The notes under the pieces: model-generated
Database searches by the model: none
Told to the model about the DNA's origin: nothing
The model's input: only the letters and a program-made list of their open reading frames with translations
Part shown: one piece after another, positions 9,371 through 37,927 of the stretch
Position numbering within the stretch: the stretch's first letter is position 1
Layout of the letters: each line of letters starts with the position of its first letter
Program-made: the position numbers and the translations under genes
NCBI RefSeq assembly: GCF_001718695.1
Contig: NZ_CP013420.1
Coordinates: 1,178,001-1,242,000, forward strand
Direction of reading: 5' to 3'
Origin: Burkholderia ubonensis
GTDB taxonomy: Bacteria > Pseudomonadota > Gammaproteobacteria > Burkholderiales > Burkholderiaceae
Length of the DNA: 64,000 bases

Positions 9371-9598
9371 ATGACCAACCTCGAATGTCTCACGGAGATC
9401 ATGACGTTCTCCCGATACGGCGCGCTCGCACAAGCATTCGTGATGGATGCGCTGAGCAAGCACGCCGAACGTGTTGCCACCGCGCCCTCCGAAAAATTGC
9501 AAGAGCAATTCGGCGCTCACCCGCTCGTCAGCGTCCACGCGTGGCAGGGCGTCGCCCGCGAGATCCACGACAAGCTCGAAGCGCACTTTTCCCGGTAG
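9371..9598 (+). CDS. Hypothetical 75-aa protein
   Basis: The product starts MTNLECLTEIMTFSRYG and is alpha-helical in character (ALAQAFVMDALSKHAERV). It contains no signal or membrane segment. It lies 11 bases after the YqaJ-like gene and 52 before the next, in the same direction, so it is probably co-transcribed with them. Similar small proteins accompany DUF932 and YqaJ genes on integrative elements, but I cannot assign a function. Confidence 0.55.
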   Translation: MTNLECLTEIMTFSRYGALAQAFVMDALSKHAERVATAPSEKLQEQFGAHPLVSVHAWQGVAREIHDKLEAHFSR

Positions 9599-9650
9599 CC
9601 GCCGCACCGCTCGCAGTTCTCTTCCCCCCATTTCTATTTTGAGGACCACC

Positions 9651-10571
9651 ATGCTCAAAGGACTCGCCATCACGCCGCCCGTCATCGGCCGCATTACTAT
9701 TGGAAAAATTGTCGAGAAGAACGGCAAACGCCTCCCCGAGAAAGACGATCAGTTCACGCTCACGACCCAGGTACAGCAGCGCGGCGAGTGGATGCTGCAC
9801 CCGCTGAACGAGACATTGCGCAAGGCCACCTCGGGCAAGCTGCGCGCAATTCCGGTCCGCGTGCTGTTCAATGATCCGGACCTGAACCTCCGGTCGGAAT
9901 ATTCCCTGTTCGACCGCGATACCGGACGGCCCGTATGTGTCGGCAATGGCGAAACGTGTCGGCGTGTAACGGACGCCGGCATCGAAGCACTGCCCTGCCC
10001 CTCGCCGGATGGCTGCACGTTCGGCCGTCAGGGTAATTGCAAGCCCTATGGACGCTTGAATGTCATTGTCGGGGACGATGACGAGATGGGCTCGTTCATC
10101 CTGCGCACCACGTCCTACAACAGTATCCGGACGCTCGCAGCCCGTCTGCACTACTTCCGCGCGGTGTCCGGCAACCTGCTCGCCTGCCTCCCGCTGGAAC
10201 TGAAGCTGCGTGGGAAGTCGACTACACAAAGCTTTCGGTCCGCCATCTACTACGTCGACCTCGGTGTACGTTCGGGAAACAAGCTCGAACAAGCGTTGAT
10301 CGAGGCAAAGGAACTGGACACGCGCCGCCGTGCGGCCGGATTCGATCAAGCTGCGCTCGACGCGGCAGCGCGGCGCGGCTTCGCCAACGGTGCATTTGAG
10401 GATAGTCCCGATGAACGAGCGGCCGTCGCGGAAGAGTTCTATCCCGAGCCGACGCCGAATCGTCAGAGTGCTGGCGATGGGGGTGCCGACGAAACAGCCG
10501 GTACGCCTCAGTCAACACTGCGAGACAAGCTCGAACGCAAGGCCGTGCTGCTCGGCGGCAAAGCGGCATGA
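9651..10571 (+). CDS. Cys-cluster protein resembling Gp3-like recombination directionality factors
   Basis: ATG 9651 follows GAGGA and gives 306 aa. The N-terminal half starts MLKGLAITPPVIGRITIGK. A compact cysteine cluster (CVGNGETC ... CPSPDGC ... GNCKPYG) at about residues 100-135 looks like a zinc site. The pattern C-x-GNG-x-C/CKPYG-x-L recalls proteins annotated as hydrolase or metal-binding protein in integrative elements, and the Gp3-like recombination directionality factor family. The C-terminal 60 residues are polar and poorly conserved in character. The stop overlaps the next gene by four bases. The family assignment rests on the cysteine pattern and context and is not certain; a DNA-binding accessory role in excision or recombination is inference. 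Confidence 0.6.
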   Translation: MLKGLAITPPVIGRITIGKIVEKNGKRLPEKDDQFTLTTQVQQRGEWMLHPLNETLRKATSGKLRAIPVRVLFNDPDLNLRSEYSLFDRDTGRPVCVGNGETCRRVTDAGIEALPCPSPDGCTFGRQGNCKPYGRLNVIVGDDDEMGSFILRTTSYNSIRTLAARLHYFRAVSGNLLACLPLELKLRGKSTTQSFRSAIYYVDLGVRSGNKLEQALIEAKELDTRRRAAGFDQAALDAAARRGFANGAFEDSPDERAAVAEEFYPEPTPNRQSAGDGGADETAGTPQSTLRDKLERKAVLLGGKAA

Positions 10572-13774: not shown

Positions 13775-15628
13775 CTATTCTTCAAGTACCAGCGCCGTAT
13801 TCGCAAACTGCTGAGTCCAAAATCCGTGGAGCTGACCATTGTGATACGACGGTTCACAACGTCTCAGTCGCTGAATTTCCCTTTTCGACGTGCTTCGAAG
13901 TTGTTCGATTGCATCCCTCACGCTAGCCGCTGAGACATTAGCGAAGAGCTTTTTCGAGATTAGATGAGCTTTCAGTCTTCCATCGCCGCGTGCATCGTCA
14001 ACGAGAAAGCGTTTTTCAAGAAGATCTTGCTCGTTTGCACCGAACATGGTTTTTAAATGTACGGTGTCAAGCACAAGAAACCCGTGCTCGTGTGCCTTTT
14101 CGCCTGTTGGGATCCTCTGATCCTCAACAATGAGTAAATAACCGTCCTCGGCCAGACATCCCTCAATAAGGGAATCCTTCCGAAAAAGGCCAGCCCACAT
14201 TCTTGGAGGTATCTCATGTAATACATTAGTCATCACGACGACTGAGATGCAACCCTTGTCTTTTGCAGCGAAAAAATCATCTTCTTTGTGGAAGAGACGA
14301 TTTTTCCCCTCAAAATACTCAGCAATAACATTAATGCATTGGTTGTGATTGTCTGTGTATTCATCGAAAGCATAATAATCGAGGATGTCTTCTGGCGATT
14401 GATTTTTTTCAGAAATCATCGCTGCCAGCCCATCCAACAACCGCCCTCTGCCAGCGCCAAAATCTAGAATCGAAAGCGGCTGCTCACTTTTCAACGACTG
14501 TAGCTGTCGTTGGACCTGTGTCACTTGAGGGTCGCCCACCCCGTCACCAATCACTTGCGGCGGCAGAAGACTTTCACTTGCGAATTTAACTGAAGCCAAT
14601 TCCGCGGGAAGGCTGGCAAACGCACTGAGTTCAGCGATCCCGTCCTCACCACCTAGCAGGCTTTTCAGAACGATCTCAGGATTCTTCCCGGCATGTGCGA
14701 TTGCTCCCTTATCCATATACCAAAGGCATTTGGAATCAACCCCAGACATATATGCAAGCAGTGGAACGGAATGGGTCGCCACCCAGATCTGGGTGGAAGT
14801 TGTGCTGTTGTATATTGCCTTGACGACATCGACCACTGCTGACGGGTGCAAATGGTTCTCCGGCTCGTCAAAGATCAGAACGGTGCGCTCAAGGTTCTGA
14901 CTTTGGGCATGCAGGGCGACACACAACTGCAACAGGACTTTTTGCCCATCAGAAAGATTTGCATCTCCCAGCACCATGCCAAAGATGAGTGGATAACCAG
15001 TGGACACTTGCCGACGAATTGGCTGCCCCAACATCTGCACCACAATCTCTTGGAAGGAACTATGTCTATCCTGAAGTCGAGTTCTTTCCTCACTTGATCC
15101 ATCAAAATCCGAGTGCGTTACGTCGTGATATTCATTGAGGAGGCGCTGAATGTAGAAAAGCGTGGTGGAGTGAAATGTGTTATGCCCAACGTCGGTCGCA
15201 TCCTGCGAGCGCTTGACGATTTCACCATGCTTCTCATTTCGAGGATCATCCAATTGCAACACTTTCGGCACGAATCTGACTGCTCGAAATGGTTCCACCT
15301 CGGGTGTTCCCACGAGTTCGGTACAGGCGGCGTAGATCAGCCGTTCTTTGCGGCGTTGCTGCGTCCAAAACCCGACATTTTCAGAATATGGGTCTTTCGT
15401 GATAGCAGCTTGCCAGAATTCGGCCTGAGAACGATGCCCTTCGGGATTTTTTAGGTTGTCCGCGGTACGTAGAGAAACGACGGCCTCTAGCGCACGAAGC
15501 AATCGTGATTTCCCCGCGCCATTCTGTCCGGCTATCGCGACCATACGACCGAGACGAGTCATTCGTATTTCTTGAAGGCCAAGTTCGGGAAAGTCGTTTG
15601 GCGGTAGCAACAGGGACGATATCAACAT
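13775..15628 (-). CDS. ABC-type ATPase fused to a SAM-dependent methyltransferase
   Basis: The 617-aa product has two clear parts. Residues 1-320 form an AAA_21/OLD-like ABC ATPase: Walker A GQNGAGKS (34-41), signature-like NLSDGQK (224-230), Walker B TVLIFDEPENHLHP (249-262) and a switch histidine in WVATHS (282-287). From about 385 a class I methyltransferase follows: motif I LDFGAGRGRLL (388-398), an acidic YYAFDEY (418-424) and VVVMTNVLHEIPP (463-475). ATPases of this class are frequent in defence systems (Gabija, Septu, retron effectors), usually fused or paired with nucleases. A fusion to a methyltransferase is unusual, and the NVLHEIP segment is unlike the DPPY/NPPY of DNA adenine methylases, so the substrate may be RNA, protein or a small molecule. 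It stands alone, convergent with its left neighbour and with an XRE gene further upstream. Confidence 0.75.
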   Translation of the reverse strand: MLISSLLLPPNDFPELGLQEIRMTRLGRMVAIAGQNGAGKSRLLRALEAVVSLRTADNLKNPEGHRSQAEFWQAAITKDPYSENVGFWTQQRRKERLIYAACTELVGTPEVEPFRAVRFVPKVLQLDDPRNEKHGEIVKRSQDATDVGHNTFHSTTLFYIQRLLNEYHDVTHSDFDGSSEERTRLQDRHSSFQEIVVQMLGQPIRRQVSTGYPLIFGMVLGDANLSDGQKVLLQLCVALHAQSQNLERTVLIFDEPENHLHPSAVVDVVKAIYNSTTSTQIWVATHSVPLLAYMSGVDSKCLWYMDKGAIAHAGKNPEIVLKSLLGGEDGIAELSAFASLPAELASVKFASESLLPPQVIGDGVGDPQVTQVQRQLQSLKSEQPLSILDFGAGRGRLLDGLAAMISEKNQSPEDILDYYAFDEYTDNHNQCINVIAEYFEGKNRLFHKEDDFFAAKDKGCISVVVMTNVLHEIPPRMWAGLFRKDSLIEGCLAEDGYLLIVEDQRIPTGEKAHEHGFLVLDTVHLKTMFGANEQDLLEKRFLVDDARGDGRLKAHLISKKLFANVSAASVRDAIEQLRSTSKREIQRLRRCEPSYHNGQLHGFWTQQFANTALVLEE

Positions 15629-19838: not shown

Positions 19839-20270
19839 GGGGACCACCTTTCGATTTGGAAACGCATTGAAATAGCGCGAGCTATCAAGATAGTCGGGGA
19901 GTCACCGTTCGGCAAAGAACCGATGAACTTCGTCTATCGGTCCCGCTGTCCGGAATGCGGTCGCTTCGCCCCGCAAGCGTGGTGGGCACACGACCCCGGC
20001 CTCTTGCTCTAATCCATGCGCTGATCACTCCGCATGTCCCCAGCCTCGAATCCGCCGTCGCCCCGTTCCCGAGGCACTGTCTGGCTGCTGCGACCCGTTT
20101 GATAGCATGCGAATGCTCCTCACCGCGAGCACCTGATACGCCCTGACTCGTAGCCGACCATCTCAATCAGTACGGTTCATAAGTTTAAATAGGGCAGCAT
20201 ACCCCTGGTTCTATCCAAGATTTCCCCAAGCCTTGGCATAATCTCGGGCACACCCCTATTTGCCGCACAC
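19839..20270. other. Upstream region of the methyltransferase operon
   Basis: About 430 bases without a convincing gene. It must contain the promoter of the restriction-like operon starting at 20271. No clear operator, repeat or terminator was found. Confidence 0.4.
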
Positions 20271-23054
20271 ATGAACGCAGTCGAAATCGAAGCCGCCGTC
20301 TCCCAGTTGGCCGAAGCACCATTTGACGCGGAAGAGTTTCCGTACGCCTTCCTCGCCGCCTTCGGGAACAAAGACACCACGATCGCCCGCCTCCGCAAGG
20401 GTGACACCAACAAATCAGATGTTCCTGGCGGGGTCCTGCAACGCAACAACATCCACCTCGCGACCTGTGCGACCGGTCAGGTCAACGCGACGTTGAACGC
20501 CCTACGCGCGAGCCCCGAAACAACGAGGAGCAAGGTTAAATTCATCCTGGCGACGGACGGCGACACCCTCGAAGCAGAAGAGCTGGTCAGTGGCGAGACA
20601 ATTGCCAGTGAATACGCAAAGTTCGCCAGCCACTTCGGCTTCTTCCTGCCCCTCGCCGGCATCTCGACAATCAGGGAAATCAAGGATAGTGCGGTCGACG
20701 TTCGAGCAACTGGCCGCCTAAATAAGCTCTACCTAGAACTTCTGAAGGAAAATTCAGATTGGGCGACGGATGAACGTCGGCAGGACATGAATCACTTCAT
20801 GGCGCGCCTCATCTTCTGTTTCTTCGCCGAAGACACCGGGATTTTTGATGGTCGAGGGCTGTTCACGAAGACCGTCGATCGTATGAGCGATGCGGCGTCG
20901 GGCAATACCCATGAAGTGATCAGCACGATTTTCCAGGCGATGAACGTGCCGACCAAGGACAGCAGTGCCCGTGTGAAGGCAAAAATCCCCGGGTGGGCTG
21001 ACGTCTTCCCGTACGTGAACGGCGGGTTGTTCGGCGGCAGCAACAACGTACCGCGCTTCACGCGCATGGCCCGAACCTACTTGCTGCACGCCGGCCAACT
21101 GGACTGGCACGAAATCAATCCGGACATCTTCGGTTCGATGATCCAAGCGGTCGCCGACGACGAGGAACGTGGCTCACTCGGTATGCACTACACGAGCGTG
21201 CCGAACATCCTGAAAGTGCTCAACCCGCTGTTCCTCGACGACCTCCGCGCGCAACTGGAAGCCGCAAGCGACAACAAAGCGAAGTTGCTGAACCTGCGCA
21301 AGCGCATGGCACGCATTCGCGTGTTCGATCCAGCGTGCGGTTCGGGTAACTTCCTGGTCATCGCGTACAAGCAGATGCGCGAGATCGAGGCCGAAGTCAA
21401 TCGCCGCCGTGAGGAGCCTGATCTACGATCAGCCATCCCATTGACCAACTTTCGTGGGATCGAGCTTCGTAGTTTCCCCGCCGAGATTGCACGTCTCGCG
21501 CTTATCATCGCCGAATATCAGTGCGACGTGCTGTATCGCGGCCAGATGCAGGCCGTGCAGGACTTCCTACCGCTCGAATCCGAGAACTGGATCACGAATG
21601 GCAACGCACTTCGACTCGATTGGTTGGCGCTCTGCCCGCCCACCGGAACGGGCGTAAAGGTCGTCTCGGATGACCTCTTCGAGACCCCACTTGATCAGCC
21701 GGAAATCGACTTCGAGAACGAAGGTGGCGAAACGTATATCTGTGGCAATCCGCCATATAAAGGCAGTAAATGGCAAACGGATGAGCAGAAGGGTGATCTG
21801 GCGAGGGCTTGGGTCAAGCATCCGAATCTTGCGAAGAACACAGACTATGTAACGGGCTGGTTCGCGAAGTTTTTTGAATACGCAGATAGCGTGCCAAATG
21901 CTGTCGGCGCGTTCGTAGCAACGAACAGCATTTGCCAAGGACAACAGGCGATTGAAATATGGCCCGCCGCCTTTGATCGCGGTTTTGAAATTAGATTTGC
22001 GCATACGTCTTTTAAGTGGGCAAATCTGGCCAGCAAAAATGCTGGCGTGACCGTCGTCGTAATCGGGCTTGGAAAACATTCAACGGGTTCAAAAAGGCTC
22101 TATCAAGATGACTTGGTGAAGGATAGCTCCGTAATCGGCCCGTACCTGGTCCCCAATAGCCTGGCCTACGTGATAAAGGCAAGCTCTCCTATCGGAGAGC
22201 AATCCCCAATGTCATTCGGCAACATGCCTCGGGATGGCGGGCACTTACTTCTGGATCGCAACCTCGCAACCAATCTGATGACAGACGAGGCGGTACGACC
22301 GTATCTCAGACTCTTCATGGGATCCGATGAACTCATCAAGGGTAAGCAGCGATATTGTTTGTGGATTCGAGACGATGAAAAGGACAGCGCGATCGAAAGT
22401 CGCTTCATCGCAGATCGGTTGAAGCTGGTCGCCGAATGTCGAAGTCAATCTAACGCCGATTCCACAAGGCAGTTTGCAAAAAAGCCATATCGATTCGTGC
22501 AAATAGCCGGGACTGCTAAGGACACTGCAATTGTTGTCGCAACTGTCTCATCCGAATCCAGAGAATATCTACCGGTTTCCTTTGTGTCCGCGAACACGAT
22601 CATTAGCAATCTTGCTTTTGCACTTTACGACGCTCCATTATGGAATCTCGCGCTGATCGCATCAAAGTTACATTGGGTATGGATAGGGACAGTGTGCTCA
22701 AGAATGCGAACAGATTTTAGATATTCCAATACAATCGGCTGGAACACGTTCCCCGTGCCGACACTCACGGAGCAAAATAAAGCCGACCTGACAAGATGCG
22801 CCGAGGACATCCTGCTTGCTCGTGAAGCGCACTTCCCGGCGACGATCGCTGACCTTTACGATCCCGATGCCATGCCGGAGAATTTGCGTCGCGCTCACGA
22901 GCGCAACGACGAAGTGCTCGAACGCATTTACATCGGGCGCAGGTTCCGCAACGACACCGAACGACTGGAAAAACTGTTCGACCTATATACGAAGATGACA
23001 GCGGCGAAAGCGAAGCCGGCCAAGAAAACCATTCGAGCACGGAAAACCGCGTAA
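20271..23054 (+). CDS. Class I DNA methyltransferase (MmeI/type IIG-like) of a three-gene restriction-like system
   Basis: The 927-aa protein has an N-terminal region of about 320 residues, including FMARLIFCFFAEDTGIF, a pattern typical of MmeI-like enzymes. SAM-binding motif I FDPACGSGNF follows at 352-361 and catalytic NPPY at 493-496. A target-recognition-like region spans about 600-830, and a basic tail ends in KKTIRARKTA. The order motif I, NPPY, recognition domain indicates gamma-type N6-adenine methylation. I see no clear PD-ExK nuclease motif in the N-terminus, so DNA cleavage would have to come from another subunit. The stop overlaps the helicase ATG by one base (TAATG). Base composition falls at about 22.0-22.7 kb, inside the recognition region, suggesting that the specificity part was exchanged by recombination. 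Confidence 0.85.
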   Translation: MNAVEIEAAVSQLAEAPFDAEEFPYAFLAAFGNKDTTIARLRKGDTNKSDVPGGVLQRNNIHLATCATGQVNATLNALRASPETTRSKVKFILATDGDTLEAEELVSGETIASEYAKFASHFGFFLPLAGISTIREIKDSAVDVRATGRLNKLYLELLKENSDWATDERRQDMNHFMARLIFCFFAEDTGIFDGRGLFTKTVDRMSDAASGNTHEVISTIFQAMNVPTKDSSARVKAKIPGWADVFPYVNGGLFGGSNNVPRFTRMARTYLLHAGQLDWHEINPDIFGSMIQAVADDEERGSLGMHYTSVPNILKVLNPLFLDDLRAQLEAASDNKAKLLNLRKRMARIRVFDPACGSGNFLVIAYKQMREIEAEVNRRREEPDLRSAIPLTNFRGIELRSFPAEIARLALIIAEYQCDVLYRGQMQAVQDFLPLESENWITNGNALRLDWLALCPPTGTGVKVVSDDLFETPLDQPEIDFENEGGETYICGNPPYKGSKWQTDEQKGDLARAWVKHPNLAKNTDYVTGWFAKFFEYADSVPNAVGAFVATNSICQGQQAIEIWPAAFDRGFEIRFAHTSFKWANLASKNAGVTVVVIGLGKHSTGSKRLYQDDLVKDSSVIGPYLVPNSLAYVIKASSPIGEQSPMSFGNMPRDGGHLLLDRNLATNLMTDEAVRPYLRLFMGSDELIKGKQRYCLWIRDDEKDSAIESRFIADRLKLVAECRSQSNADSTRQFAKKPYRFVQIAGTAKDTAIVVATVSSESREYLPVSFVSANTIISNLAFALYDAPLWNLALIASKLHWVWIGTVCSRMRTDFRYSNTIGWNTFPVPTLTEQNKADLTRCAEDILLAREAHFPATIADLYDPDAMPENLRRAHERNDEVLERIYIGRRFRNDTERLEKLFDLYTKMTAAKAKPAKKTIRARKTA

Positions 23055-25168
23055 TGTGCAACGAAGAGACCAAGCGTTATTCCATCCCAACCGTCTCGAT
23101 CAAGACGGATCGAACGGGGGCGTCCAGCAAATCGAACGCATTGGGTATGCGTCCCATGCAGGAACGCGCCTACGCAAGACGGGGCGAACAATACCTGTTG
23201 ATCAAGTCGCCGCCGGCTTCCGGCAAGTCGCGCGCGTTGATGTTCATCGCGCTCGACAAGTTGACGAACCAGGGCATCAAGCAAGCCCTGATCGTGGTGC
23301 CCGAGCGCTCGATCGGTGGCAGTTTTGCCGACGAACCACTGTCCCAGTACGGCTTCTTCACCGATTGGGTGGTGAAACCGCAGTGGAACTTGTGCAACGC
23401 GCCTGGTGCGGACGACGTAAAGGTGGCTCCGTCCAAGGTTAAGGCCGTCGGCGAGTTCCTTGCCAGCGACGACAAAGTACTGGTCTGCACGCACGCCACG
23501 TTCCGGTTTGCCTACCAAGAACTTGGGCCAGCCGCGTTCGACCATCGTTTGATCGCGGTGGATGAGTTCCACCACGTTAGCAGCGACCAGGACAACATCC
23601 TGGGCCGGCAGTTGACCGAGTTGATTCAGCGGAACAAGGTGCACATGGTCGCGATGACCGGCTCCTACTTCCGTGGCGATGCCGAAGCCGTGCTGACACC
23701 GGACGACGAAGCGCGCTTCGATACGGTGACGTACACCTATTACGAGCAGCTGAACGGCTACGAGTATCTGAAATCACTCGACATCGGCTACTACTTCTAC
23801 ACCGGCCAGTACCTCGATGCGGTCATGCGGGTACTTGATCCGTCGTTGAAGACGATCGTGCACATCCCGAACGTCAACTCGCGCGAAAGCCTGAAGCAAA
23901 AGCACAAAGAGGTTGAGGGGATCATGGACGGTCTCGGCACCTGGAAAGGTACCGATCCCCAAACCGGCTTTCATCTTGTCGAGTTGCCCGAGGGCCGCGT
24001 GATCAAGGTTGCCGACCTGGTGGATGACGGGGATGGGCGCTCCGCTGTTCTGTCGGCGCTGAAAGACCCGAAGCAGAAGAACAATCGCGATCACGTCGAC
24101 ATCATCATCGCGCTCGGCATGGCGAAGGAAGGCTTCGACTGGATCTGGTGCGAGCACGCGCTGACCATTGGCTATCGCAACAGCCTGACGGAGATCGTTC
24201 AGATCATCGGTCGCGCCACCCGCGACGCGCCGGGCAAGGAAAGCGCGCACTTCACGAATCTGATCGCTGAACCGGACGCGTCCGAGGACATGGTGGCCGA
24301 TGCGATCAACGACACGTTGAAAGCGATCGCCGCAAGCCTGCTCATGGAGCAAGTCCTGGCGCCGCGCTTCGCGTTCACGCCCAAGAATGCCGGCGAGCAG
24401 CCTGGTTTCGACTACGGCCGCGAGGGTTACAAAGATGGTCAACTCAACGTCGGTGTGAACCACGACGACGGGCGCGTGCACGTCGAGGTCAAGGGTCTGG
24501 TCGAACCGAAGTCCGAGGAAGCGGCGCGCATCTGTCGCGAGGACATCAACGAAGTGCTCGCCTCGTTCGTGCAGAACAGCAAAACGCTCGAGCGCGGGTT
24601 GTTCGACCACGACAACACGATCCCTGAAGAACTCACGATCCTTCAGATGGGCAAGATCGTGCGCGAGAAGTATCCGCACCTAGAAGAGGACGATCAGGAG
24701 GCCGTGCGCCAATACGCGGTCGCAGCGCTGGCTTTCACGCAAAAGGCCAAGCAGGTCAAAATGCTGATTACCGACGAAGCAACCGGTGGGGTCGACGACG
24801 GTACGCCCAAAGCAAACCTTGCCCTCATTGAAGGGGTGAAGCAGTTTGCGATGAGCGTCACGGAACTGGACATCGACCTGATCGACCGGATCAACCCGTT
24901 CGACACCGCCTACGCGATTCTTGCGAAGGCGATGGACGAGAAAACCTTGAAGCAGGTGCAAGCCGTGATCGCGGCGCGCAAGATCAACATCCCTATCGAA
25001 GAGGCGCGCGAACTGGCGAAACGGGCCGTTGAGTTCAAGCGTGATCGCAATCGTCTGCCGGACATCAACGCCGCCGATCCGTGGGAGAAGCGCATGGCCG
25101 AGGGCATCGCGGTTCTTGCCCGCTACAAGGCGGCCGAGAAGAGGAAGGAAGGCAATGGCAACGCGTAA
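23054..25168 (+). CDS. SF2 helicase/translocase of the restriction-like system
   Basis: The 704-aa protein carries SF2 motifs: Walker A SPPASGKS (52-59), motif II DEFH (170-173) in LIAVDEFHHVS, a motif III-like MTGSYFR (about 201), and motif VI QIIGRATRD (383-391). The helicase core ends near residue 430. A C-terminal region of about 270 residues with charged helices (EEDDQEAVRQYAVAAL) has no recognised domain and may bind the partner proteins. The motif II form DEFH and overall plan resemble type III restriction or UvrB-like translocases. Its start overlaps the methyltransferase stop by one base, and its end overlaps the nuclease gene by 14, so the three proteins are probably made in fixed ratio and work as a complex. 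Confidence 0.85.
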   Translation: MCNEETKRYSIPTVSIKTDRTGASSKSNALGMRPMQERAYARRGEQYLLIKSPPASGKSRALMFIALDKLTNQGIKQALIVVPERSIGGSFADEPLSQYGFFTDWVVKPQWNLCNAPGADDVKVAPSKVKAVGEFLASDDKVLVCTHATFRFAYQELGPAAFDHRLIAVDEFHHVSSDQDNILGRQLTELIQRNKVHMVAMTGSYFRGDAEAVLTPDDEARFDTVTYTYYEQLNGYEYLKSLDIGYYFYTGQYLDAVMRVLDPSLKTIVHIPNVNSRESLKQKHKEVEGIMDGLGTWKGTDPQTGFHLVELPEGRVIKVADLVDDGDGRSAVLSALKDPKQKNNRDHVDIIIALGMAKEGFDWIWCEHALTIGYRNSLTEIVQIIGRATRDAPGKESAHFTNLIAEPDASEDMVADAINDTLKAIAASLLMEQVLAPRFAFTPKNAGEQPGFDYGREGYKDGQLNVGVNHDDGRVHVEVKGLVEPKSEEAARICREDINEVLASFVQNSKTLERGLFDHDNTIPEELTILQMGKIVREKYPHLEEDDQEAVRQYAVAALAFTQKAKQVKMLITDEATGGVDDGTPKANLALIEGVKQFAMSVTELDIDLIDRINPFDTAYAILAKAMDEKTLKQVQAVIAARKINIPIEEARELAKRAVEFKRDRNRLPDINAADPWEKRMAEGIAVLARYKAAEKRKEGNGNA

Positions 25169-26381
25169 AAAAAGCCCGGTACCGAACGATGTGTCCGACG
25201 ACGACCTGCTTGAACAGTTGGGCATCTCGGTCGAAATTGAGGTCACTGGTGGTCGTACGGCCCAAGAGGAGCGCATCATCGCCGGTTTCGAGGAAATCCA
25301 GCGCTTCGTCGAGCAGCACGGCTACGCGCCTCGCCACGGCGAAGGTTTCGACATTTTCGAGCGCCTTTACGCTGTTCGCCTGGATCAACTACGTCGCAAC
25401 ACGGCCGCACTGGCGTTGCTGGCACCCTGGGACACCCAAGGTCTGCTTGCCCAGTCGGCGACCGAGACCGAGGCAGATCTCAACCAACTTGGCGACGATG
25501 ATCTGCTCGCGGAACTTGGGGTCGACGCAAAAGATGACGACGACATTACGGTGCTCCGGCACGTCCGATCCGCTGCGGAAAAGGCGGCGGCCGAGCAAAC
25601 CGCCGAACGTACGCCGTGCGTCGATTTCGAGAAGTTCAAGCCTCTGTTCGACGAGGCCAAGGCGGGGCTGAAGGACGGCACCTGGGAAGCGTTGCCGTTT
25701 GCTCACGATGCTGAAATCAAACTAGAAAGCATTCAACAAGGTGACTTCTACATCCTGAACGGGCAGATTGCCTACATCGCTGACATGGGCGACGAAATCA
25801 AAACGTCCGTCACCGACCGACCGGATGCGCGGCTTCGTGTCATCTACGACAACGAGACCGAAAGCGATCTGTTGCAGCGTTCGTTCCAGAAGGCGCTCTA
25901 CCGCGACGACGCACCGCGTCGTCTGCGCAAGAAAGAGGTGGGATCACTTTTCAGCGGCGAATGGCAAGACGACGACGTGCAGAGCGGTACGATCTACGTG
26001 CTGCGCTCGTTGTCCAACGATCCGCGCATCGCCCCGTACCGCCAGGTCATTCACAAGATTGGCGTGACGAGCGGCAAGGTCGAAACGAGAATCGCGGATG
26101 CCGAGAATGATGCGACGTACCTGCTCGGTAAAGTGGAAGTCGTAACCACCTACAAGCTCGCCGGTGTCGATCGAACCAAAGTAGAAAGCTTGATCCACAA
26201 GATTTTCGCAAGCGCCCAGATCGACCTGGAAATCCTCGATCGCTTCGGCAAACCAGTCAAACCTCGCGAATGGTTCCTAGTCCCTTTACCGATTATTGAT
26301 GAAGCAGTACAAAGTATCTTGAACGGCACAATACTCGATAAGGTCTATGACCGAGAAACTGGCAAGCTGGTCAGCCGGTGA
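25155..26381 (+). CDS. GIY-YIG (T5orf172/MUG113-type) nuclease of the restriction-like system
   Basis: ATG 25155, with GGAAGGAAGG just upstream, gives 408 aa; the frame extends further up but overlaps the helicase. The N-terminal 200 residues are acidic and helical, with two related DDDLLEQLGI / DDDLLAELGV segments that look like a short repeat. A GIY-YIG domain begins near residue 279: IYVLRSL, then HKIGVTSGKVETRIADAE with the conserved Arg, ending with an acidic ESLIHKIF (metal-binding Glu). The final WFLVPL is typical of the MUG113/T5orf172 subfamily. With the methyltransferase and helicase it makes a complete modify-translocate-cut set. The gene is followed by a promoter-sized gap before the H-NS gene. 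Confidence 0.8.
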   Translation: MATRKKSPVPNDVSDDDLLEQLGISVEIEVTGGRTAQEERIIAGFEEIQRFVEQHGYAPRHGEGFDIFERLYAVRLDQLRRNTAALALLAPWDTQGLLAQSATETEADLNQLGDDDLLAELGVDAKDDDDITVLRHVRSAAEKAAAEQTAERTPCVDFEKFKPLFDEAKAGLKDGTWEALPFAHDAEIKLESIQQGDFYILNGQIAYIADMGDEIKTSVTDRPDARLRVIYDNETESDLLQRSFQKALYRDDAPRRLRKKEVGSLFSGEWQDDDVQSGTIYVLRSLSNDPRIAPYRQVIHKIGVTSGKVETRIADAENDATYLLGKVEVVTTYKLAGVDRTKVESLIHKIFASAQIDLEILDRFGKPVKPREWFLVPLPIIDEAVQSILNGTILDKVYDRETGKLVSR

Positions 26382-26650
26382 CCGCCCCGAGCGCCGCGCT
26401 ATGATCTGGAACAGTGAAGCAGAACGGACATGGTGGCAAGGTTATTGAATTTCAAAACGAATAGAGAAGAAACACCGTGAAGCGCGATCGGGATCTGCTG
26501 CGCAAGCAGCTTACCCTCCATGTCCGCAGAAAGTCGAATAAATTTCTCGGATGGCGCTATGCATCACCTTCGCTCAACTCAATCATTTCGACTTGCCGGG
26601 CGTCTCCACGAATGAAGCAACTTCTGCAAATCGATCACCACCATACGCAA

Positions 26651-26977
26651 ATGAACAATCAATCTATTCGAGATCTACAAAAGCAACTTGGCCAACTTAA
26701 TCTGCTGCTCGCAGAAGCCAAGCATAAAGAGAAACATGTCGCCCTCGAGCAAATTGCAGCATACGTCAAGGAATACGACATCACCGAGACTGAATTGCTG
26801 CGCGCCGCCGGCTTAGTCAAACCTAAGCGTCAGAAGGCACCCGCCATGTACTACGATCCCAACAGCGGGAATTCTTGGACTGGTCGTGGTAAGCGGCCAA
26901 AGTGGCTTGAAGACAAGAATCTCGATGACTACCTGATCCGGGAAGCTGCCAAACCCTGGTGGCCCGAAGGACACTGA
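26651..26977 (+). CDS. H-NS family histone-like protein
   Basis: ATG 26651 gives 108 aa; an upstream in-frame extension from 26477 has no family-like content. The N-terminal two-thirds is a coiled-coil oligomerisation region (IRDLQKQLGQLNLLLAEAK). The C-terminal DNA-binding motif is clear: YYDPNSGNSWTGRGKRPKWL, matching the Y..P..G.tWtGrG..P.Wl core. H-NS proteins bind curved AT-rich DNA and silence transferred genes. A second, distinct member lies at 32026-32367. In the region just before, about 270 bases hold no other gene. Confidence 0.85.
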   Translation: MNNQSIRDLQKQLGQLNLLLAEAKHKEKHVALEQIAAYVKEYDITETELLRAAGLVKPKRQKAPAMYYDPNSGNSWTGRGKRPKWLEDKNLDDYLIREAAKPWWPEGH

Positions 26978-29020: not shown

Positions 29021-30686
29021 TGTTGATTTTCACCGAATCTTGACCCACCGGGGATGCGGACAAAATCTTGGACTACTTTGGAGGTAGTCCATGTATTCAT
29101 ACGAAGACCGCGTTCGGGCGGTCGAGCTGTACCTGAAACTCGGAAAGCGCGTCAAGGCGACAATCCGCCAGTTGGGTTACCCGACGAAGAATTCTCTCAA
29201 GGCGTGGTGCGAGGAATTCGAGAAGAGTGGCGATCTGCAGAAAGAGTATGTTCGCGTAAAGCCAAAGTACTCAGAAGAACAGAAGAACCTGGCACTTGAG
29301 CATTACGTCAATCACGGGCGCAGCTTCAGCTTCACCCTCAGGGCATTAGGCTATCCCTGTCGCCAGATACTGACGGCGTGGGTTCGCGAGCGCTATCCGG
29401 AAACCAGGAAACGCGTGGTTGGCAAGGCAGGCCGACCGGCCGTGTCATTGGCGACCAGGCAGCTCGCGGTGTACGAACTGTGCACACGGGAAGGAAGTGC
29501 ACAGGCGGTGGCGCAAAAGCTGGACGTCGACAGGGTGTCGCTGTACAACTGGAAAAACCAGTTACTCGGCCGAGGGGCCCCTGCATCCATGAAGCGCGAC
29601 AAGGGATCACCATCAGAGACGGATCGGGACGAACTGGAGCGGCAGGTCGAAGAGCTCCGGCGCGACATTCGCAATCTGAAGCTTGAACACGACCTGTTGA
29701 AGAAGGCGAATGAACTCGTAAAAAAAGACCTGGGCGTCGACCTGCCACTCCTGAGCAATCGGGAGAAGACGAAGCTGGTTGACGCCCTGAGAGAAGAATA
29801 CGGTTTGACTGAGCTGCTTGAGCGGTTGGACCTGGCGCGCAGCTCCTATTTTTATCATCGATCGCCCATACGGGTTGCCGACAAATATGCAGATGTCCGT
29901 CGTACCGTTGCAGAGATCTTCGAGGACAATCACCGATCCTACGGCTATCGTCGGGTGCAAGCAGCGCTTAGCAGGCAACGAGTGTTTCTATCGGAGAAAG
30001 TCGTGCGTCGCCTCATGAAACAAGGCGGCCTCCACGCAGCAAGGCCCAAGCGGCGCCGATATCGCTCTTATATCGGGGAAATCAGCCCTGCCCCAGATAA
30101 CATCATCAATCGCGATTTCCACGCGAACGCCCCCAACGAAAAGTGGGTGACGGATATTTCCGAGTTCCAGATTCCTGCGGGGAAGGTATATCTATCGCCC
30201 ATGATCGACTGCTTCGATGGGATGGTAGTCAGCTGGTCGATTGGCACAAGCCCCGACGCAGAGCTCGTGAATTCCATGCTAGATGCGGCTATTGAGACCG
30301 TGACCGAGGACGACGAGACGCCGATCGTGCATTCCGATCGGGGTGGCCACTACCGTTGGCCTGGCTGGCTATCGCGGGTTGCGAAGGCTAAGCTGATCCC
30401 CTCCATGTCGCGTAAAGCCTGTTCACCGGACAACGCGGCCTGTGAGGGATTCTTCGGCAGGCTAAAGACTGAGATGTTCTATACAGGAGACTGGCGTTCG
30501 ACGACCATCGCGGAGTTCGTTGAGGTACTGGACGCCTACGTTCGCTGGTACAACGAGAAACGGATCAAGGGCTCCCTTGGCTATCTCAGCCCCATCGAGT
30601 ACCGTGAAAGCCTCGGGTTAGCAACGTAAATCAGTCCAAGAAAATAGCCGCATCCCCGGTGGGTCAGTTCTGCGTGGACATCAACA
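29021..30686 (+). mobile_element. IS3-family insertion sequence, 1,666 bp
   Basis: The ends are imperfect inverted repeats: both begin TGTTGAT and share TGACCCACCGGGGATGCGG some 20 bases in, followed by a partly matching TTGGACT. The element carries one transposase gene and is flanked by a perfect 7-bp direct repeat. Intact ends, an intact transposase and a perfect target duplication point to a recent insertion. Seven bases is longer than the 3-5 usual for the IS3 family. Confidence 0.85.
29091..30629 (+). CDS. IS3-family transposase, single 512-aa ORF
   Basis: The N-terminal third holds repeated helix-turn-helix segments (VRAVELYLKLGKRVKATIRQ; AVYELCTREGSAQAVAQKL) and a leucine-zipper-like coil (LEHDLLKKANELVKKDLG). 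An HTH_21-type linker follows (SYGYRRVQAALSRQ). The DDE integrase domain begins at WVTDISEF (first Asp), has IVHSDRGGHY (second Asp) and the Glu in CEGFFGRLKTEMFY, and ends with YNEKRIKGSLGYLSP. Most IS3 members make OrfAB by programmed frameshifting; here both parts are in one frame. The transposase is complete and probably functional. Confidence 0.9.
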   Translation: MYSYEDRVRAVELYLKLGKRVKATIRQLGYPTKNSLKAWCEEFEKSGDLQKEYVRVKPKYSEEQKNLALEHYVNHGRSFSFTLRALGYPCRQILTAWVRERYPETRKRVVGKAGRPAVSLATRQLAVYELCTREGSAQAVAQKLDVDRVSLYNWKNQLLGRGAPASMKRDKGSPSETDRDELERQVEELRRDIRNLKLEHDLLKKANELVKKDLGVDLPLLSNREKTKLVDALREEYGLTELLERLDLARSSYFYHRSPIRVADKYADVRRTVAEIFEDNHRSYGYRRVQAALSRQRVFLSEKVVRRLMKQGGLHAARPKRRRYRSYIGEISPAPDNIINRDFHANAPNEKWVTDISEFQIPAGKVYLSPMIDCFDGMVVSWSIGTSPDAELVNSMLDAAIETVTEDDETPIVHSDRGGHYRWPGWLSRVAKAKLIPSMSRKACSPDNAACEGFFGRLKTEMFYTGDWRSTTIAEFVEVLDAYVRWYNEKRIKGSLGYLSPIEYRESLGLAT

Positions 30687-32416: not shown

Positions 32417-33628
32417 TTATTGTAGCTCGACCCTGTTGATTGCCATTCTCTTCCTCCCCTTCGGAATCGCCTCTATCTTTGGTGGATGACTCGGCCAAAA
32501 CGTCCGGTGTGAATCCGGCTTCGCCATCTTCCCGTAGAAGTCTGCCTTCGCAATGTAAGGCACTACAGTCTCTCTCAGCACTTTCAGCTTCTCATGCTCG
32601 CCACGTCTAATCGAACCAATCCCTCTTTTTTGATAGGTTCGTTGATTACAGTTGCAAGCCCCGCCTTTTCCCTTCGTGATCTCCGATTTCCAGTAGTTGC
32701 AGATCATCTCTGTGATACCAACGTCCTTGCGAACGACGTTGCCATTGAGGATCACGATAACGTGGAAGTGATGCTGCTTGTCGAGACCGAACTCCATCTT
32801 GATTGCGAATGCCAGTCCTTTGCACGCTCCCGCTGGCAGGCGATTCTTCAAATGCCGTTTAAGGAAGCGACGGAGCGCCACTCTATGCTCCCGCATCTCC
32901 TCGTATGAAACTGCCTGCTCACCAGCCAAGGTACGATCACAATAGAATTGACTGTACCCGAGATCGAATCTTAGTACGAGGAGGTGGTGGTTGACACTCA
33001 GGCAGGCGTCAATCAAAGATAGAAGGCGTTCTTCATTCTCCCTGGGCTGCCTCTGAATTCTGAGCAACCAATTCTGAAATGCTTCATCGCCCCCCTCTTG
33101 TCGAATTCGCTCTATCGCCTGATTCGAATACTTGACGAATAACTCAAGCACATCGTCGGAGAAAAAATCCCTATCTCCAAAAGGCAACCATTCCGACCTT
33201 GCCGCAGTAGCGAGTGGCATTGAGTCATTGGCCAGGGGCACATCGCGCATGACTGCGTCGTAGAAGATACCGAAATAGCGATTGAACCTCCCAATGTCAG
33301 GATACCTGTCGATGATACGCTCCAGGTCCATTTGAAGGCATCTGAGAAAGCATTCTCCACCACTCGTCGCCTCGACGACCTTTGTGTTCGGCCTTCTCGG
33401 ATGAATCGCTGCAACTGGTATCAGCCTCAATAGCGACCGCTTGGTTATCAGAAGTCTTTTCACGACGCTCGTGATATAGCTCACGTCGCTCGCTATCGAG
33501 GTCTCGTTGGCTATCCGAGTAGCAACCACGTCGCCATCTTGCTCCGCGAACATCAGAGCCTCATAGGGCTCCATTGACCACACATCCTCGTCGCCGTATT
33601 CATTATCCACCATCCCATCCTTAATCAT
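32417..33628 (-). CDS. Inovirus Gp2 / YagK-YfjJ family protein, probable replication initiator
   Basis: ATG 33628 is preferred (GAGGGAAG upstream); a GTG at 33673 would add 15 residues. The 403-aa product has a C-terminal domain of the YagK/YfjJ type with LLVLRFDLGYSQFY, a basic RVALRRFLKRHLKNRLP, and HHFHVIVILNG, which resembles the HUH metal-binding motif of rolling-circle initiators. Downstream lie ICNYWKSEITKGKGGACNCNQ and tyrosines (VPYIAKADFYGK) that could be the nicking residue. The family is found in CP4-57-like prophages and some filamentous phages. A role in satellite replication is inferred from the motif and the YfjI-like gene upstream. Confidence 0.7.
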   Translation of the reverse strand: MIKDGMVDNEYGDEDVWSMEPYEALMFAEQDGDVVATRIANETSIASDVSYITSVVKRLLITKRSLLRLIPVAAIHPRRPNTKVVEATSGGECFLRCLQMDLERIIDRYPDIGRFNRYFGIFYDAVMRDVPLANDSMPLATAARSEWLPFGDRDFFSDDVLELFVKYSNQAIERIRQEGGDEAFQNWLLRIQRQPRENEERLLSLIDACLSVNHHLLVLRFDLGYSQFYCDRTLAGEQAVSYEEMREHRVALRRFLKRHLKNRLPAGACKGLAFAIKMEFGLDKQHHFHVIVILNGNVVRKDVGITEMICNYWKSEITKGKGGACNCNQRTYQKRGIGSIRRGEHEKLKVLRETVVPYIAKADFYGKMAKPDSHRTFWPSHPPKIEAIPKGRKRMAINRVELQ

Positions 33629-34214
33629 CGCTCTTCCCTCAATACCTGATTCATTTTCAGACCAATTTGCCACACTGACGAGAGACGCGCGGATACTGAC
33701 CGGCTTACTCGTCGTATCATGGACAGGGTCAGTATTTTTTTACGGTAACTTGAACGGTCGATGGGAACGACATAGGGGCACTCCCAGGAGGGGTGCCCGG
33801 CACGCGGGTAGGGATGATTCCCGAAGAAAGGCTATAGGGAAAGAAGATAGCAGGATCCCTCCTCTATTGACGGAGGATCGAAGAAGAGAAGCAGCGATGG
33901 ATATAGGCCAACACGGATATGCAATAGTCTCTGACGCCAGCTTGCCATTGGCCATTAACTTTACGGACTAACAACGATTGATCCGCAATAGAGAGTCAGC
34001 AGAGACAGCCGGAGTACATGCGTGGATTGACCGGAATACCCGGAACCATTGGTTTCGAAGCACTATTCAACGTCGCCAAGTTAGCGTTTTGCACCGAACG
34101 TGGATGCAGGCGTTCCGCCACCGACCTAGTCAAGGGTTGAAGGGATAGCTCACCGTACGACTAAGTGAGTCCGCCCAGCTGTGTTTGTCAAACAATATCT
34201 ACCCGTCGTCCGTC
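33629..34214. other. Non-coding region with hairpins, possible origin
   Basis: About 590 bases upstream of the Gp2-like gene, with no convincing gene. Besides the hairpin at 33776-33798 there is a second imperfect one at about 33855-33880 (GATCC...GGATC with CTCC/GGAG). The position next to a putative rolling-circle initiator makes an origin possible, but nothing proves it. Confidence 0.3.
33776..33798. repeat. Inverted repeat upstream of the Gp2-like gene
   Basis: GGGCAC (33776-33781) pairs with GTGCCC (33793-33798), with an inner CCC/GGG and one bulged base. Candidate nick-site hairpin or operator. Confidence 0.35.
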
Positions 34215-34378: not shown

Positions 34379-36196
34379 TTAGAGGTCGAAATGAAATGCG
34401 TATTTTTTCCCGCCTCCGCGCCAATCCTTGAAGGTGTATTTGATCTCGACAGACTTCGGCTCCTGCTTTCCCGCCCCGGCCTGTCGAGCATTCTTTTCCC
34501 TAATCGCAATGTTTCCACGCCCCTCCAGCCACTTGACGACTTGATCAAATTTCTCCGTCTTCTTCAAGCCGTAACGCGGACAACGCGCACGCAGCTCGTG
34601 ATAAGGAATTCGGCAATTCGTGTGATCTAGGCCTATTCCCAAAGGCTCCCGAAGCTGCCCGCCGTTCTTCTCATCCAGCATCTGCTTCAATCGCTTGAGA
34701 ACATAGCGCGCCATCTCGCGCATTGCCACTTCAGGATTGAACACCCTCTTGAATTCGTTCAGATACCACTCCACCACCCTGATCGCCGAAGTCACCGTCG
34801 CCTCGGGTATTTCCCTTTCGGCTGCATCGTCGGGCCTGCTCGCGCTGTCCGGCTTCCCGCGCTCGAAGAAATGAAATAGCGCAGCAAGACGCGCGACGTG
34901 CTCACCATAGCGGTTGACGAACTCCCGCTCATAGACCAGCTTCCCATCATCTGCCGTCGCCCGTTCCATCTCGTTGAAATCCTTCTCCCATGCCTGTTGC
35001 GCCGTCTGCGAGAAATAGAGCGTTTTCCGCCCCCGAGAACGCAGAGCGATGTCGGAATGGCCGTGAGAAAGAAGTGCGCGAACGCGGTTGTTGAACAACT
35101 CGGTCCACTCAGTCAATCTTGGCACCGAAGTATCAACCGTCCTTTTTCCGTATGGTGTGTCTGGCCTCGAAAGTAGAACGCGCGACATGAAGCCGATCCC
35201 CTTCGCCAATTCCCCCTTCCGCTCGAGGAAGCGGTCAAATACGATCGGCTGCACCATTAGCGACATAGTGAGACGCGGGTCTTCGATAAAGAAGCTTTCC
35301 CGGGCAGTACGTCCGACAACATCGATAGCCTTGCCTTCCCAAAGTTTGTCGAGACTCGACATGTCTGATTCGCCACGGGCATTCAGGATACCAGCGGCTT
35401 CATCTGAAAACAGACCGGCAGATGGCCAGTTCTCAGCCAGGCTTTGCTCCAGCTGACGAATCGGGATCTTGGAATAGAGCACTCGCTGCAGGCGAGGCTC
35501 ACGGTATCCAGATTCTTCCCGGCGGAGCTCTGCAAGCCTATGCTCAACTTCTTCGAGTTCTGCCTTGGCGCCCTCGACTGTATTGTTGTCATCCTTCTGC
35601 CCGCGAATGGTCAGCGTGCGTATCTGCCGCCGCCACGCGCGAGAATCCTTCTCCAGTTCCGCGATAGTTCGCCGCCTCTCCTTCGATAGATACGCCCCCT
35701 CTTCAATTCGTGCAGTGTATTCGGCGCGTTTCTCCCTGTCGTAGACTTCGATGGCGGATGTTACGGTGCCGTCTGCCCGCGACTTTCGCGCCCCAGTATC
35801 TGTAACAGACAACATATAGAGCGAGCACACCGATTTCTCGCCAATGCCACGATCTATCCAGATCAGGTCCTGACATGAGAGAGATACGGCCGATATGACG
35901 GCCTGTACGGCAATCGGCACAGCAACCTTATCGTTCCTGCAAATCTCGATAACGGCACCTCGAATGGTCTCTGGCAGTACCTGCCATGGAAACGTCTCAT
36001 CTTCGGGTTCGAATTCGGGAAACTTGGCCCGGCTCCGGCGTTCGACCGGCTCTTGCCCGTTCGCCGCTGCCGGAGAAGAAGCACTATCCACCAGTTCCAC
36101 GTCGTCAAGTTCACTTGCAACCGCCGCAGAAGCAGGCGGTGCAGACTCAGCAGTGTATTCTTCCCTATATCCGGGGCAATCGTTTTCGTTATTCAT
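34379..36196 (-). CDS. YfjI-family DUF3987 protein
   Basis: The 605-aa product has a disordered acidic N-terminus (about 70 residues), then the DUF3987 core: WQVLPETIRGAVIEICRND, AVISAVSLSCQDLIWID, SLYMLSVTDTGARKS (a degenerate P-loop-like position), a long coiled coil (AELEKDSRAWRRQIRTL), GLFSDEAAGIL (Walker B-like acidic pair) and the late helical part RLAALFHFFE. The C-terminus (VVKWLEGRGNIAIREKN) looks like a winged helix. YfjI proteins of CP4-57-type elements are thought to be replication-associated ATPases, but this is not well proven. It shares its direction with the Gp2-like gene, and a terminator lies between them. Confidence 0.8.
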   Translation of the reverse strand: MNNENDCPGYREEYTAESAPPASAAVASELDDVELVDSASSPAAANGQEPVERRSRAKFPEFEPEDETFPWQVLPETIRGAVIEICRNDKVAVPIAVQAVISAVSLSCQDLIWIDRGIGEKSVCSLYMLSVTDTGARKSRADGTVTSAIEVYDREKRAEYTARIEEGAYLSKERRRTIAELEKDSRAWRRQIRTLTIRGQKDDNNTVEGAKAELEEVEHRLAELRREESGYREPRLQRVLYSKIPIRQLEQSLAENWPSAGLFSDEAAGILNARGESDMSSLDKLWEGKAIDVVGRTARESFFIEDPRLTMSLMVQPIVFDRFLERKGELAKGIGFMSRVLLSRPDTPYGKRTVDTSVPRLTEWTELFNNRVRALLSHGHSDIALRSRGRKTLYFSQTAQQAWEKDFNEMERATADDGKLVYEREFVNRYGEHVARLAALFHFFERGKPDSASRPDDAAEREIPEATVTSAIRVVEWYLNEFKRVFNPEVAMREMARYVLKRLKQMLDEKNGGQLREPLGIGLDHTNCRIPYHELRARCPRYGLKKTEKFDQVVKWLEGRGNIAIREKNARQAGAGKQEPKSVEIKYTFKDWRGGGKKYAFHFDL

Positions 36197-37850: not shown

Positions 37851-37927
37851 TGGCCCGCCCTACACGATTCGAACGTGTGACCTACGGCTTAGAAGGCCGT
37901 TGCTCTATCCAACTGAGCTAAGGGCGG
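37851..37927 (-). tRNA. tRNA-Arg(TCT)
   Basis: A full cloverleaf can be drawn on the minus strand: acceptor CCGCCCT/AGGGCGG, D-arm GCTC...GAGC, anticodon arm ACGGC-CTTCTAA-GCCGT (anticodon TCT), T-arm ACACG-TTCGAAT-CGTGT, discriminator G and encoded CCA. It is 77 bases long. Its 3' end is the border between accessory and core DNA. Confidence 0.95.

What the first reader, a model, noticed from the sequence alone, without database searches (positions are those of the whole stretch)
20271..26381. Three-gene methyltransferase - SF2 helicase - GIY-YIG nuclease operon
Seen: three overlapping genes (1-base and 14-base overlaps) with clear motifs for adenine methylation (FDPACGSGNF, NPPY), ATP-driven translocation (SPPASGKS, DEFH, QIIGRATRD) and a MUG113/T5orf172-type GIY-YIG domain. 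Known: classical type I and III systems use a PD-ExK nuclease fused to the helicase, and type IIG enzymes carry it in the methyltransferase. Here the only nuclease visible is the separate GIY-YIG subunit. This would be a restriction-modification-like system with a different division of labour, and I cannot match it to a named system. Lower base composition in the recognition region suggests specificity exchange.
Basis: partly seen in the sequence, partly recalled or inferred. Interest (0 to 1): 0.85.

Follow-up and report, generated by a model that had tools for sequence, protein, structure and literature searches.

The report
DnmA-YeeB-YeeC type restriction-modification operon
Three linked bacterial genes encode a DNA-marking enzyme, a DNA motor and a DNA-cutting enzyme that very probably work together against foreign DNA; the set is a widespread, already described but poorly understood cousin of classical restriction systems.

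Summary
In detail: three overlapping genes encode an MmeI-type adenine methyltransferase (M), an SF2 helicase (H) and a T5orf172/GIY-YIG nuclease (G). The trio is co-inherited: all three genes are seen in 73 of 80 related loci (five of the other seven are cut short or have little upstream sequence; L016 and L056 lack G) and in 7 of 7 plasmid loci fetched. The inferred division of labour holds up: the PD-ExK motif is absent from 85 of 85 H-linked M proteins tested (84 distinct) and present in 8 of 8 solo MmeI homologues, while GIY-YIG residues are invariant (71 of 71). Specificity exchange is shown against L015: an 880-bp recognition segment does not align between stretches of 84% and 87% DNA identity. 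Apparently unreported: 33 of 77 loci carry extra genes between M and H (YhcG, RhuM, Fic, GmrSD, AlbA_2 and others). The operon sits in a 55.5-kb tRNA-Arg island. Cleavage is inferred, not shown.

The parts
20271..23054 (+). M: MmeI-type (type IIL-like) adenine-specific DNA methyltransferase, DnmA/YeeA-like, 927 aa
   Evidence: Pfam MmeI_N, MmeI_hel, MmeI_Mtase, MmeI_TRD, MmeI_C; PADLOC IIG model 897 bits; MmeI structure 5hr4 E 8e-128
20271..20747 (+). MmeI_N domain (residues 1-159): place of MmeI's PD-ExK nuclease, motif absent
   Evidence: Pfam E 1.1e-32; strict motif 0 of 85 H-linked M (one locus counted twice) against 8 of 8 solo homologues
21255..22106 (+). Methyltransferase domain (residues 329-612) with FDPACGSGNF and NPPY
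   Evidence: Pfam PF20473 E 3.5e-108; motif conservation
22164..22766 (+). Target recognition domain (residues 632-832)
   Evidence: Pfam PF20466 E 3.3e-78; median identity to relatives 46% against 65-90% for the other four domains
21759..22638 (+). Exchanged segment: no DNA alignment to L015, while both sides align at 84% and 87%
   Evidence: blastn; sliding protein identity
23054..25168 (+). H: SF2 helicase/translocase, YeeB-like, 704 aa
   Evidence: DEAD 1.9e-07, ResIII 1e-05; motifs I, II, III, VI conserved in 81; a homologue is annotated YeeB
25155..26381 (+). G: GIY-YIG (T5orf172/MUG113) nuclease, YeeC-like, 408 aa
   Evidence: T5orf172 2.9e-12; Y281, K301-I302-G303, R312, E344, H348 in 71 of 71
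25986..26318 (+). GIY-YIG domain of G (residues 278-388)
   Evidence: Pfam range (shifted by one codon); strand-strand-helix-strand-helix order in the model
37851..37927 (-). tRNA-Arg(TCT), integration site of the island that holds the operon; second copy of its 3' end lies 17.6 kb left of the window

Best explanation
[quoted passage not shown] M recognises a short asymmetric sequence through its exchangeable recognition domain and methylates an adenine on one strand to mark self DNA (family inference). M lacks the PD-ExK residues by which MmeI cuts DNA. On unmodified sites M is thought to engage H, which moves along DNA with ATP, and G makes the cut with its GIY-YIG site. The work is thus divided as in type I systems, but with a fused M+S subunit, a separate motor and an unrelated separate nuclease. 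Shown here: gene set, co-inheritance, absence of PD-ExK in M, conserved helicase and GIY-YIG motifs, recognition-segment exchange, and presence on an island and on plasmids. Inferred: complex formation, translocation, cleavage and anti-phage action.
For: Domains. Co-inheritance: of 80 loci 77 show M, 75 show G and 73 show both beside H, with no exception to the order M-H-G; of the 5 loci without G, 3 end at a contig edge and 2 (L016, L056) lack it. Of 14 genomes with an H match among 369 of the class, the 10 other than the window's own with a near full-length match all have M, H and G in order. All 7 plasmid loci fetched, from Pseudomonadota, Bacillota and Actinomycetota, do too. Division of labour: strict PD-ExK motif in 0 of 71 + 0 of 14 H-linked M proteins (L145 repeats L024) and in 8 of 8 solo MmeI homologues; GIY-YIG residues in 71 of 71. 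Prior work, passages read: DnmA makes m6A at GACGAG, lacks the MmeI endonuclease motif and is followed by yeeB and yeeC, and a type I-like system has been suggested (PMC7261158); conserved synteny, and deletion of the Vibrio crassostreae dnmA and yeeB homologues raised sensitivity to some phage subclades (PMC9973331 citing Piel et al.).
Against: In B. subtilis, single deletions changed neither killing nor plaquing by three phages, loss of dnmA did not change plasmid transformation, and the authors call the cluster a non-functional relic (PMC9973331, PMC7261158). No biochemical proof of cleavage appeared in the passages I read. M is interrupted in 3 of the 10 class genomes (two frames in G232 and G109, an in-frame stop in G119), and G is missing in L016 and L056. 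The model of G (pTM 0.42) found no GIY-YIG structure among the 50 matches listed, and the H model matched generic SF2 helicases with poor superposition. A profile of the N-terminal domain of M aligned to MmeI only beyond the PD-ExK region and weakly (E 0.53), so loss of the motif rests on Pfam, the solo homologues and the papers. I have no direct alignment to the B. subtilis proteins.
Confidence: 0.72

Rival explanations
1. A methylation-dependent blocking system (BREX or DISARM-like): M marks self DNA, and H with G stops foreign DNA replication without site-linked double-strand cleavage.
For: M has weaker matches to DrmMI (96 bits) and PglX models; [quoted passage not shown]
Against: The IIG model scores 897 bits against 96 for DrmMI, and no BREX or DISARM model is among the four families that H matches. 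A GIY-YIG protein with its expected residues invariant points to cutting.
Confidence: 0.15
2. A relic: only M is active and acts as an orphan regulatory methyltransferase; H and G are decaying passengers.
For: This is the authors' conclusion for B. subtilis (PMC9973331). Decay occurs in relatives, though it hits M as well: M is interrupted in 3 of 10 class genomes, and G is missing in L016 and L056.
Against: In the window all three frames are open, and H and G motifs are invariant or nearly so over 71-81 proteins. L015 shares H at 93% and G at 89% with an exchanged recognition segment, which fits continued use of the set.
Confidence: 0.1
3. G is a homing or accessory nuclease riding with an M-H pair rather than a subunit of the system.
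For: GIY-YIG/T5orf172 domains are common in selfish nucleases (general knowledge). L016 lacks G with 10 kb of downstream sequence held.
Against: G follows H in 75 of the 77 loci not cut off by a contig end, overlapping it in 73 of 75 with starts as I placed them, and in all 7 plasmid loci.
Confidence: 0.05

Closest known systems
DnmA(YeeA)-YeeB-YeeC cluster of Bacillus subtilis (homologues reported in Vibrio crassostreae)
   Same: MmeI-like methyltransferase without endonuclease motif, then SF2 helicase, then T5orf172/GIY-YIG protein, in the same order (passages).
   Different: The window's set is in a tRNA island of another bacterium; its recognition sequence is unknown; it has not been shown to be active or inactive.
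MmeI, type IIL restriction-modification enzyme (PDB 5hr4)
   Same: All five Pfam domains of M are MmeI domains; residues 89-922 align to the solved chain.
   Different: PD-ExK motif absent; further genes for motor and nuclease.
Type I restriction-modification (HsdMSR)
   Same: Separate modification and ATP-motor genes; genes for RhuM, Doc/Fic and other effectors are reported in R-M operons (PMC3710099 passages).
   Different: No HsdS: recognition is fused to M. No HsdR nuclease domain matched in H: the nuclease is a separate GIY-YIG protein.
Type ISP enzymes such as LlaBIII (4xqk)
   Same: Methylation, translocation and restriction in one system; LlaBIII is among the SF2 hits of the H model (rank 21, E 1.6e-06).
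   Different: ISP enzymes are one polypeptide with a PD-ExK-type nuclease (general knowledge).

Membership tests
DnmA-YeeB-YeeC cluster | MmeI-like methyltransferase lacking the endonuclease motif | tested here: met
DnmA-YeeB-YeeC cluster | SF2 helicase gene next downstream | tested here: met
DnmA-YeeB-YeeC cluster | T5orf172/GIY-YIG gene second downstream | tested here: met
DnmA-YeeB-YeeC cluster | Direct sequence homology to the B. subtilis proteins | tested here: inconclusive
   B. subtilis rings for PF20473 among the control genomes; a 67%-identical plasmid helicase is annotated YeeB; the protein searches meant to settle it timed out
DnmA-YeeB-YeeC cluster | m6A at an asymmetric site | not testable with these tools
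   needs long-read methylation data
Type IIL (MmeI) single-chain enzyme | PD-ExK motif in the N-terminal domain | tested here: not met
   the direct profile alignment to MmeI did not reach the region
Type I R-M | Separate HsdS and an HsdR with fused PD-ExK nuclease | tested here: not met
   no HsdS or HsdR nuclease domain among Pfam matches up to E 0.1 for the nine proteins scanned; the E-x-K-like stretch in the C-terminal part of H keeps K in 21 of 81
Type III R-M | Mod-type methyltransferase and Res with nuclease | tested here: not met
   M is MmeI-type; H matches ResIII weakly and only over residues 32-203
BREX / DISARM | PglZ/PglY/BrxC or DrmA/DrmB beside the methyltransferase | tested here: not met
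   none among the matches shown for H, G or the six other proteins scanned between 13.8 and 30.6 kb (for the ATPase at 13775-15628 only 25 of 130 weak matches were shown)

The most novel reading that the evidence does not exclude
The trio is a distinct ATP-dependent restriction lineage that arose from type IIL enzymes by trading the in-cis PD-ExK nuclease for a motor plus a GIY-YIG cutter. It also works as a chassis: the M-H junction is a dedicated slot for interchangeable second-line effectors (YhcG, RhuM, Fic, GmrSD, AlbA_2, OLD-like, Tmn-like), perhaps held in check by the R-M core as PrrC is by its type I host. The window's copy has an empty slot.
Probability: 0.45. Interest if true: 0.65.

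Novelty: new member of a known kind. Interest (0 to 1): 0.42.

Why it matters
The family is common (567 of 590 pattern-matched stretches in one capped scan encode a relative of H; 262 plasmid records match), yet in its best-studied model the authors found no restriction, so its mechanism is open. The reciprocal pattern found here (no PD-ExK in M where motor and GIY-YIG are present, PD-ExK kept in the solo homologues read) and the cargo slot make testable predictions about how a modification enzyme acquires a new restriction module. A library that scores M alone, as PADLOC 2.0.0 does here, would suggest a type IIG enzyme and leave out the motor and nuclease.

Tried and rejected
A hidden nuclease in H: the 'VHVEVKG' stretch near residue 478 keeps E in 81 of 81 but K in only 21 (N in 53), so it is not a conserved PD-ExK site. 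Structure route: AlphaFold models of H (mean pLDDT 73, pTM 0.72) and G (80, pTM 0.42) gave generic SF2 matches for H and, for G, mainly EF-P/eIF5A-like domains with no match at E 0.001 or better and no GIY-YIG entry among the 50 listed; nothing rests on them. PDB sequence searches with the H and G alignments gave nothing useful, and one with the N-terminal part of M did not reach MmeI's PD-ExK region. sigma-70 and terminator scans were at or below chance. Type I, type III, BREX and DISARM filings were rejected (membership table).

Rows dropped: of 80 loci L015-L094, M alignments kept 70 plus the window (7 short M proteins, most at contig edges, and 3 loci without M left out), H 80 plus the window, and G 70 plus the window (5 left out: 3 cut by a contig end, L025 in two frames, L047 with a misplaced frame). 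Of the 16 further H-linked loci read, L146 and L148 (interrupted M) were left out of the motif count, leaving 14; L143 was kept because its N-terminal part is open, and L145 is the same locus as L024. The looser pattern D-x8-11-ExK hit 2 of 71 H-linked M proteins elsewhere in the domain. Two of the eight solo homologues are from one genome. Cargo was counted in the 77 of 80 loci with M and H visible; its genes are mechanical open frames of 80 aa or more.

Full report
Observation. M (20271-23054) carries the complete MmeI domain series in Pfam (MmeI_N, MmeI_hel, MmeI_Mtase, MmeI_TRD, MmeI_C), matches a PADLOC type IIG model over residues 5-912 (897 bits) and aligns to the solved MmeI structure 5hr4 from residue 89 on (E 8e-128). 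H (23054-25168) is an SF2 helicase with weak DEAD and ResIII matches and no convincing defence-library match (PbeA, 20 bits). G (25155-26381) carries T5orf172/MUG113 (GIY-YIG) and only a marginal PADLOC match (PDC-S57, 14 bits).

Named system. Papers read in passages describe the same arrangement as DnmA(YeeA)-YeeB-YeeC. PMC7261158 reports that DnmA makes m6A at GACGAG, is 38% identical to MmeI, belongs to a set of MmeI homologues that lack the endonuclease motif and are flanked by yeeB- and yeeC-like genes, and that a type I-like system has been suggested; it credits Morgan et al. 2009, which is not held. PMC9973331 reports conserved synteny (helicase at +1, T5orf172/GIY-YIG at +2), no phage phenotype in B. 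subtilis with three phages, and, citing Piel et al. (not read; a recalled DOI for the published version was not held), increased sensitivity to some phage subclades on deletion of the V. crassostreae dnmA and yeeB homologues. It also cites Makarova et al. 2011 for YeeB and YeeC in defence islands (not held). A plasmid homologue fetched here is annotated 'DNA helicase restriction/modification system component YeeB' between a 'DNA methyltransferase' and a 'GIY-YIG nuclease family protein'.

Co-inheritance. M is seen in 77 of 80, G in 75 and both in 73, with no exception to the order M-H-G on one strand. Of the five without G, L044, L072 and L094 end at a contig edge, while L016 and L056 lack it. 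The three without M have at most 1.5 kb of upstream sequence. In 369 genomes of the window's class, 14 matched H at E <= 0.001: the window's own, 10 with a near full-length match, G257 (cut by its contig end) and two short fragments. The 10 have M, H and G in order, but M is interrupted in 3 of them: two frames in G232 and G109, an in-frame stop in G119. In the plasmid collection 262 records match H; 7 were fetched (Acetobacter, Rhodococcus, Bosea, Lactiplantibacillus, Staphylococcus, Alteromonas, Methylosinus) and 7 of 7 have the trio, with H identity down to 39%. Phage records gave two short matches.

Division of labour. Among strong MmeI_Mtase hits in 229 genomes of the class I read eight proteins that have no H or G match in the 7-11.5 kb fetched around them (two are from one genome; four further, partial hits were not read). 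All 8 have the strict motif [IVLM]D..W.G.{2,3}[IVLA]E.K at what I take, from the papers and from recall, to be MmeI's PD-ExK site. It is in 0 of 71 H-linked M proteins from the 80 loci and window and 0 of 14 from other H-linked loci (L145 repeats L024, so 84 are distinct); in the alignment its place is taken by sequence such as VLQ(R/T)NNIH. A profile of this domain did not align to the MmeI chain over that region. In G the residues Y281, K301-I302-G303, R312, E344 and H348 are identical in 71 of 71. Motifs I, II, III and VI of H are conserved in 81. So in every case tested the in-cis nuclease site is gone where motor and GIY-YIG are present, and kept where they are not. The solo sample is small and from one class.

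Specificity exchange. L015 (Burkholderia sp. SRS-W-2-2016) has H 93%, G 89% and M 71% identical. DNA aligns at 83.8% over 20263-21758 and 87.1% over 22639-26379, with nothing between. In protein blocks of 30, identity is 70-100% up to residue 480 and 80-93% after 810; over 511-810 it is 27-50% except 70% at 571-600. The alignment stops at the end of G although 8.8 kb beyond is held in L015; upstream only 0.3 kb is held, so the left border is less well tested. Thus the recognition segment is swapped within an otherwise shared operon. G+C of residues 481-810 is 49.6%.

Cargo slot. In 77 loci with M and H visible, 39 have M and H within 20 bases (31 with a 4-base overlap), 5 have gaps of 61-190, and 33 carry 300 bases or more between them, with one to three open frames on the same strand; the first starts 4 bases inside M in 22 of 33 and the last overlaps H by 4 bases in 14 of 33. 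Families: YhcG/DUF1016 PD-ExK (11 loci), AlbA_2 with HATPase_c_4 (6), RhuM (4), GmrSD_N (3), SoFic-type Fic (2), PDDEXK_4 (1), OLD-like (1), a Tmn/YobI ATPase (1), PDC-S67 (1), and several without a family (clusters of more than one member are named after one or two scanned members). PMC3710099 (passages) describes RhuM, Doc/Fic and related effectors in R-M operons. I found no paper describing this slot in the DnmA-YeeB-YeeC family (searches; open-licence library only); PMC9973331 mentions an 'uncharacterized protein family' nearby that could be another member of the locus. The window's own operon has no cargo.

Setting. The tRNA-Arg(TCT) 3' end at 37851 is repeated at G000:C1:1160365 (23 of 23 bases; about 49 bases by eye), next to a tyrosine integrase (L150:2020-3480), giving a 55.5-kb island that holds the operon. 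H was not found in the other 64 genomes of the genus searched.

Mechanism. Most likely M marks one strand at an asymmetric site, and at unmarked sites the complex uses H to translocate and G to cut. Complex formation, translocation and cutting are inference; B. subtilis data speak against activity there, V. crassostreae data (second-hand) for it. Verdict: real and well conserved; a new member of a known kind whose mechanism is untested, with a cargo slot as the fresh observation.

Noticed in passing
window 1-37927 and L150 (G000:C1:1158500-1178100): A 55.5-kb island bounded by a repeat of the tRNA-Arg(TCT) 3' end, with a tyrosine integrase at its left end; inside also a Gp3-like recombination directionality factor (9471-10571), a weak G2P-like replication protein match (32417-33673) and DUF3987 (34379-36196).
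   Followed up: partly
L150:9532-19550: Two-partner secretion/contact-dependent inhibition genes (ShlB-type transporter, TPS-domain protein, 1522-aa protein ending in a CDI toxin domain) in the same island.
   Followed up: no
window 13775-15628 (-): 617-aa protein joining an OLD/AbiEii-like ATPase (AAA_21) to a Methyltransf_23 domain; the stretch 14001-15000 is 48% G+C; possibly another defence gene.
   Followed up: no
window 26477-26977 and 29091-30629: An H-NS C-terminal domain protein directly downstream of the operon, then an IS3-family transposase.
   Followed up: no
G000:C1:2090858-2091727 (L096): A second, diverged MmeI_Mtase-domain protein (open frame 1190 aa) elsewhere in the same genome.
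   Followed up: no
L046:12158-12418: Extra partial match to the N-terminal part of G between H and G in Acinetobacter pecorum; L147 also has about 750 bases between H and G.
   Followed up: no
L074:6827-8014, L077, L090: A cargo family of about 395 aa in three M-H slots; the member scanned (L074) has no Pfam match.
   Followed up: partly
L016:12195-14108: A 637-aa open frame without Pfam or PADLOC match follows H where G is missing.
   Followed up: partly
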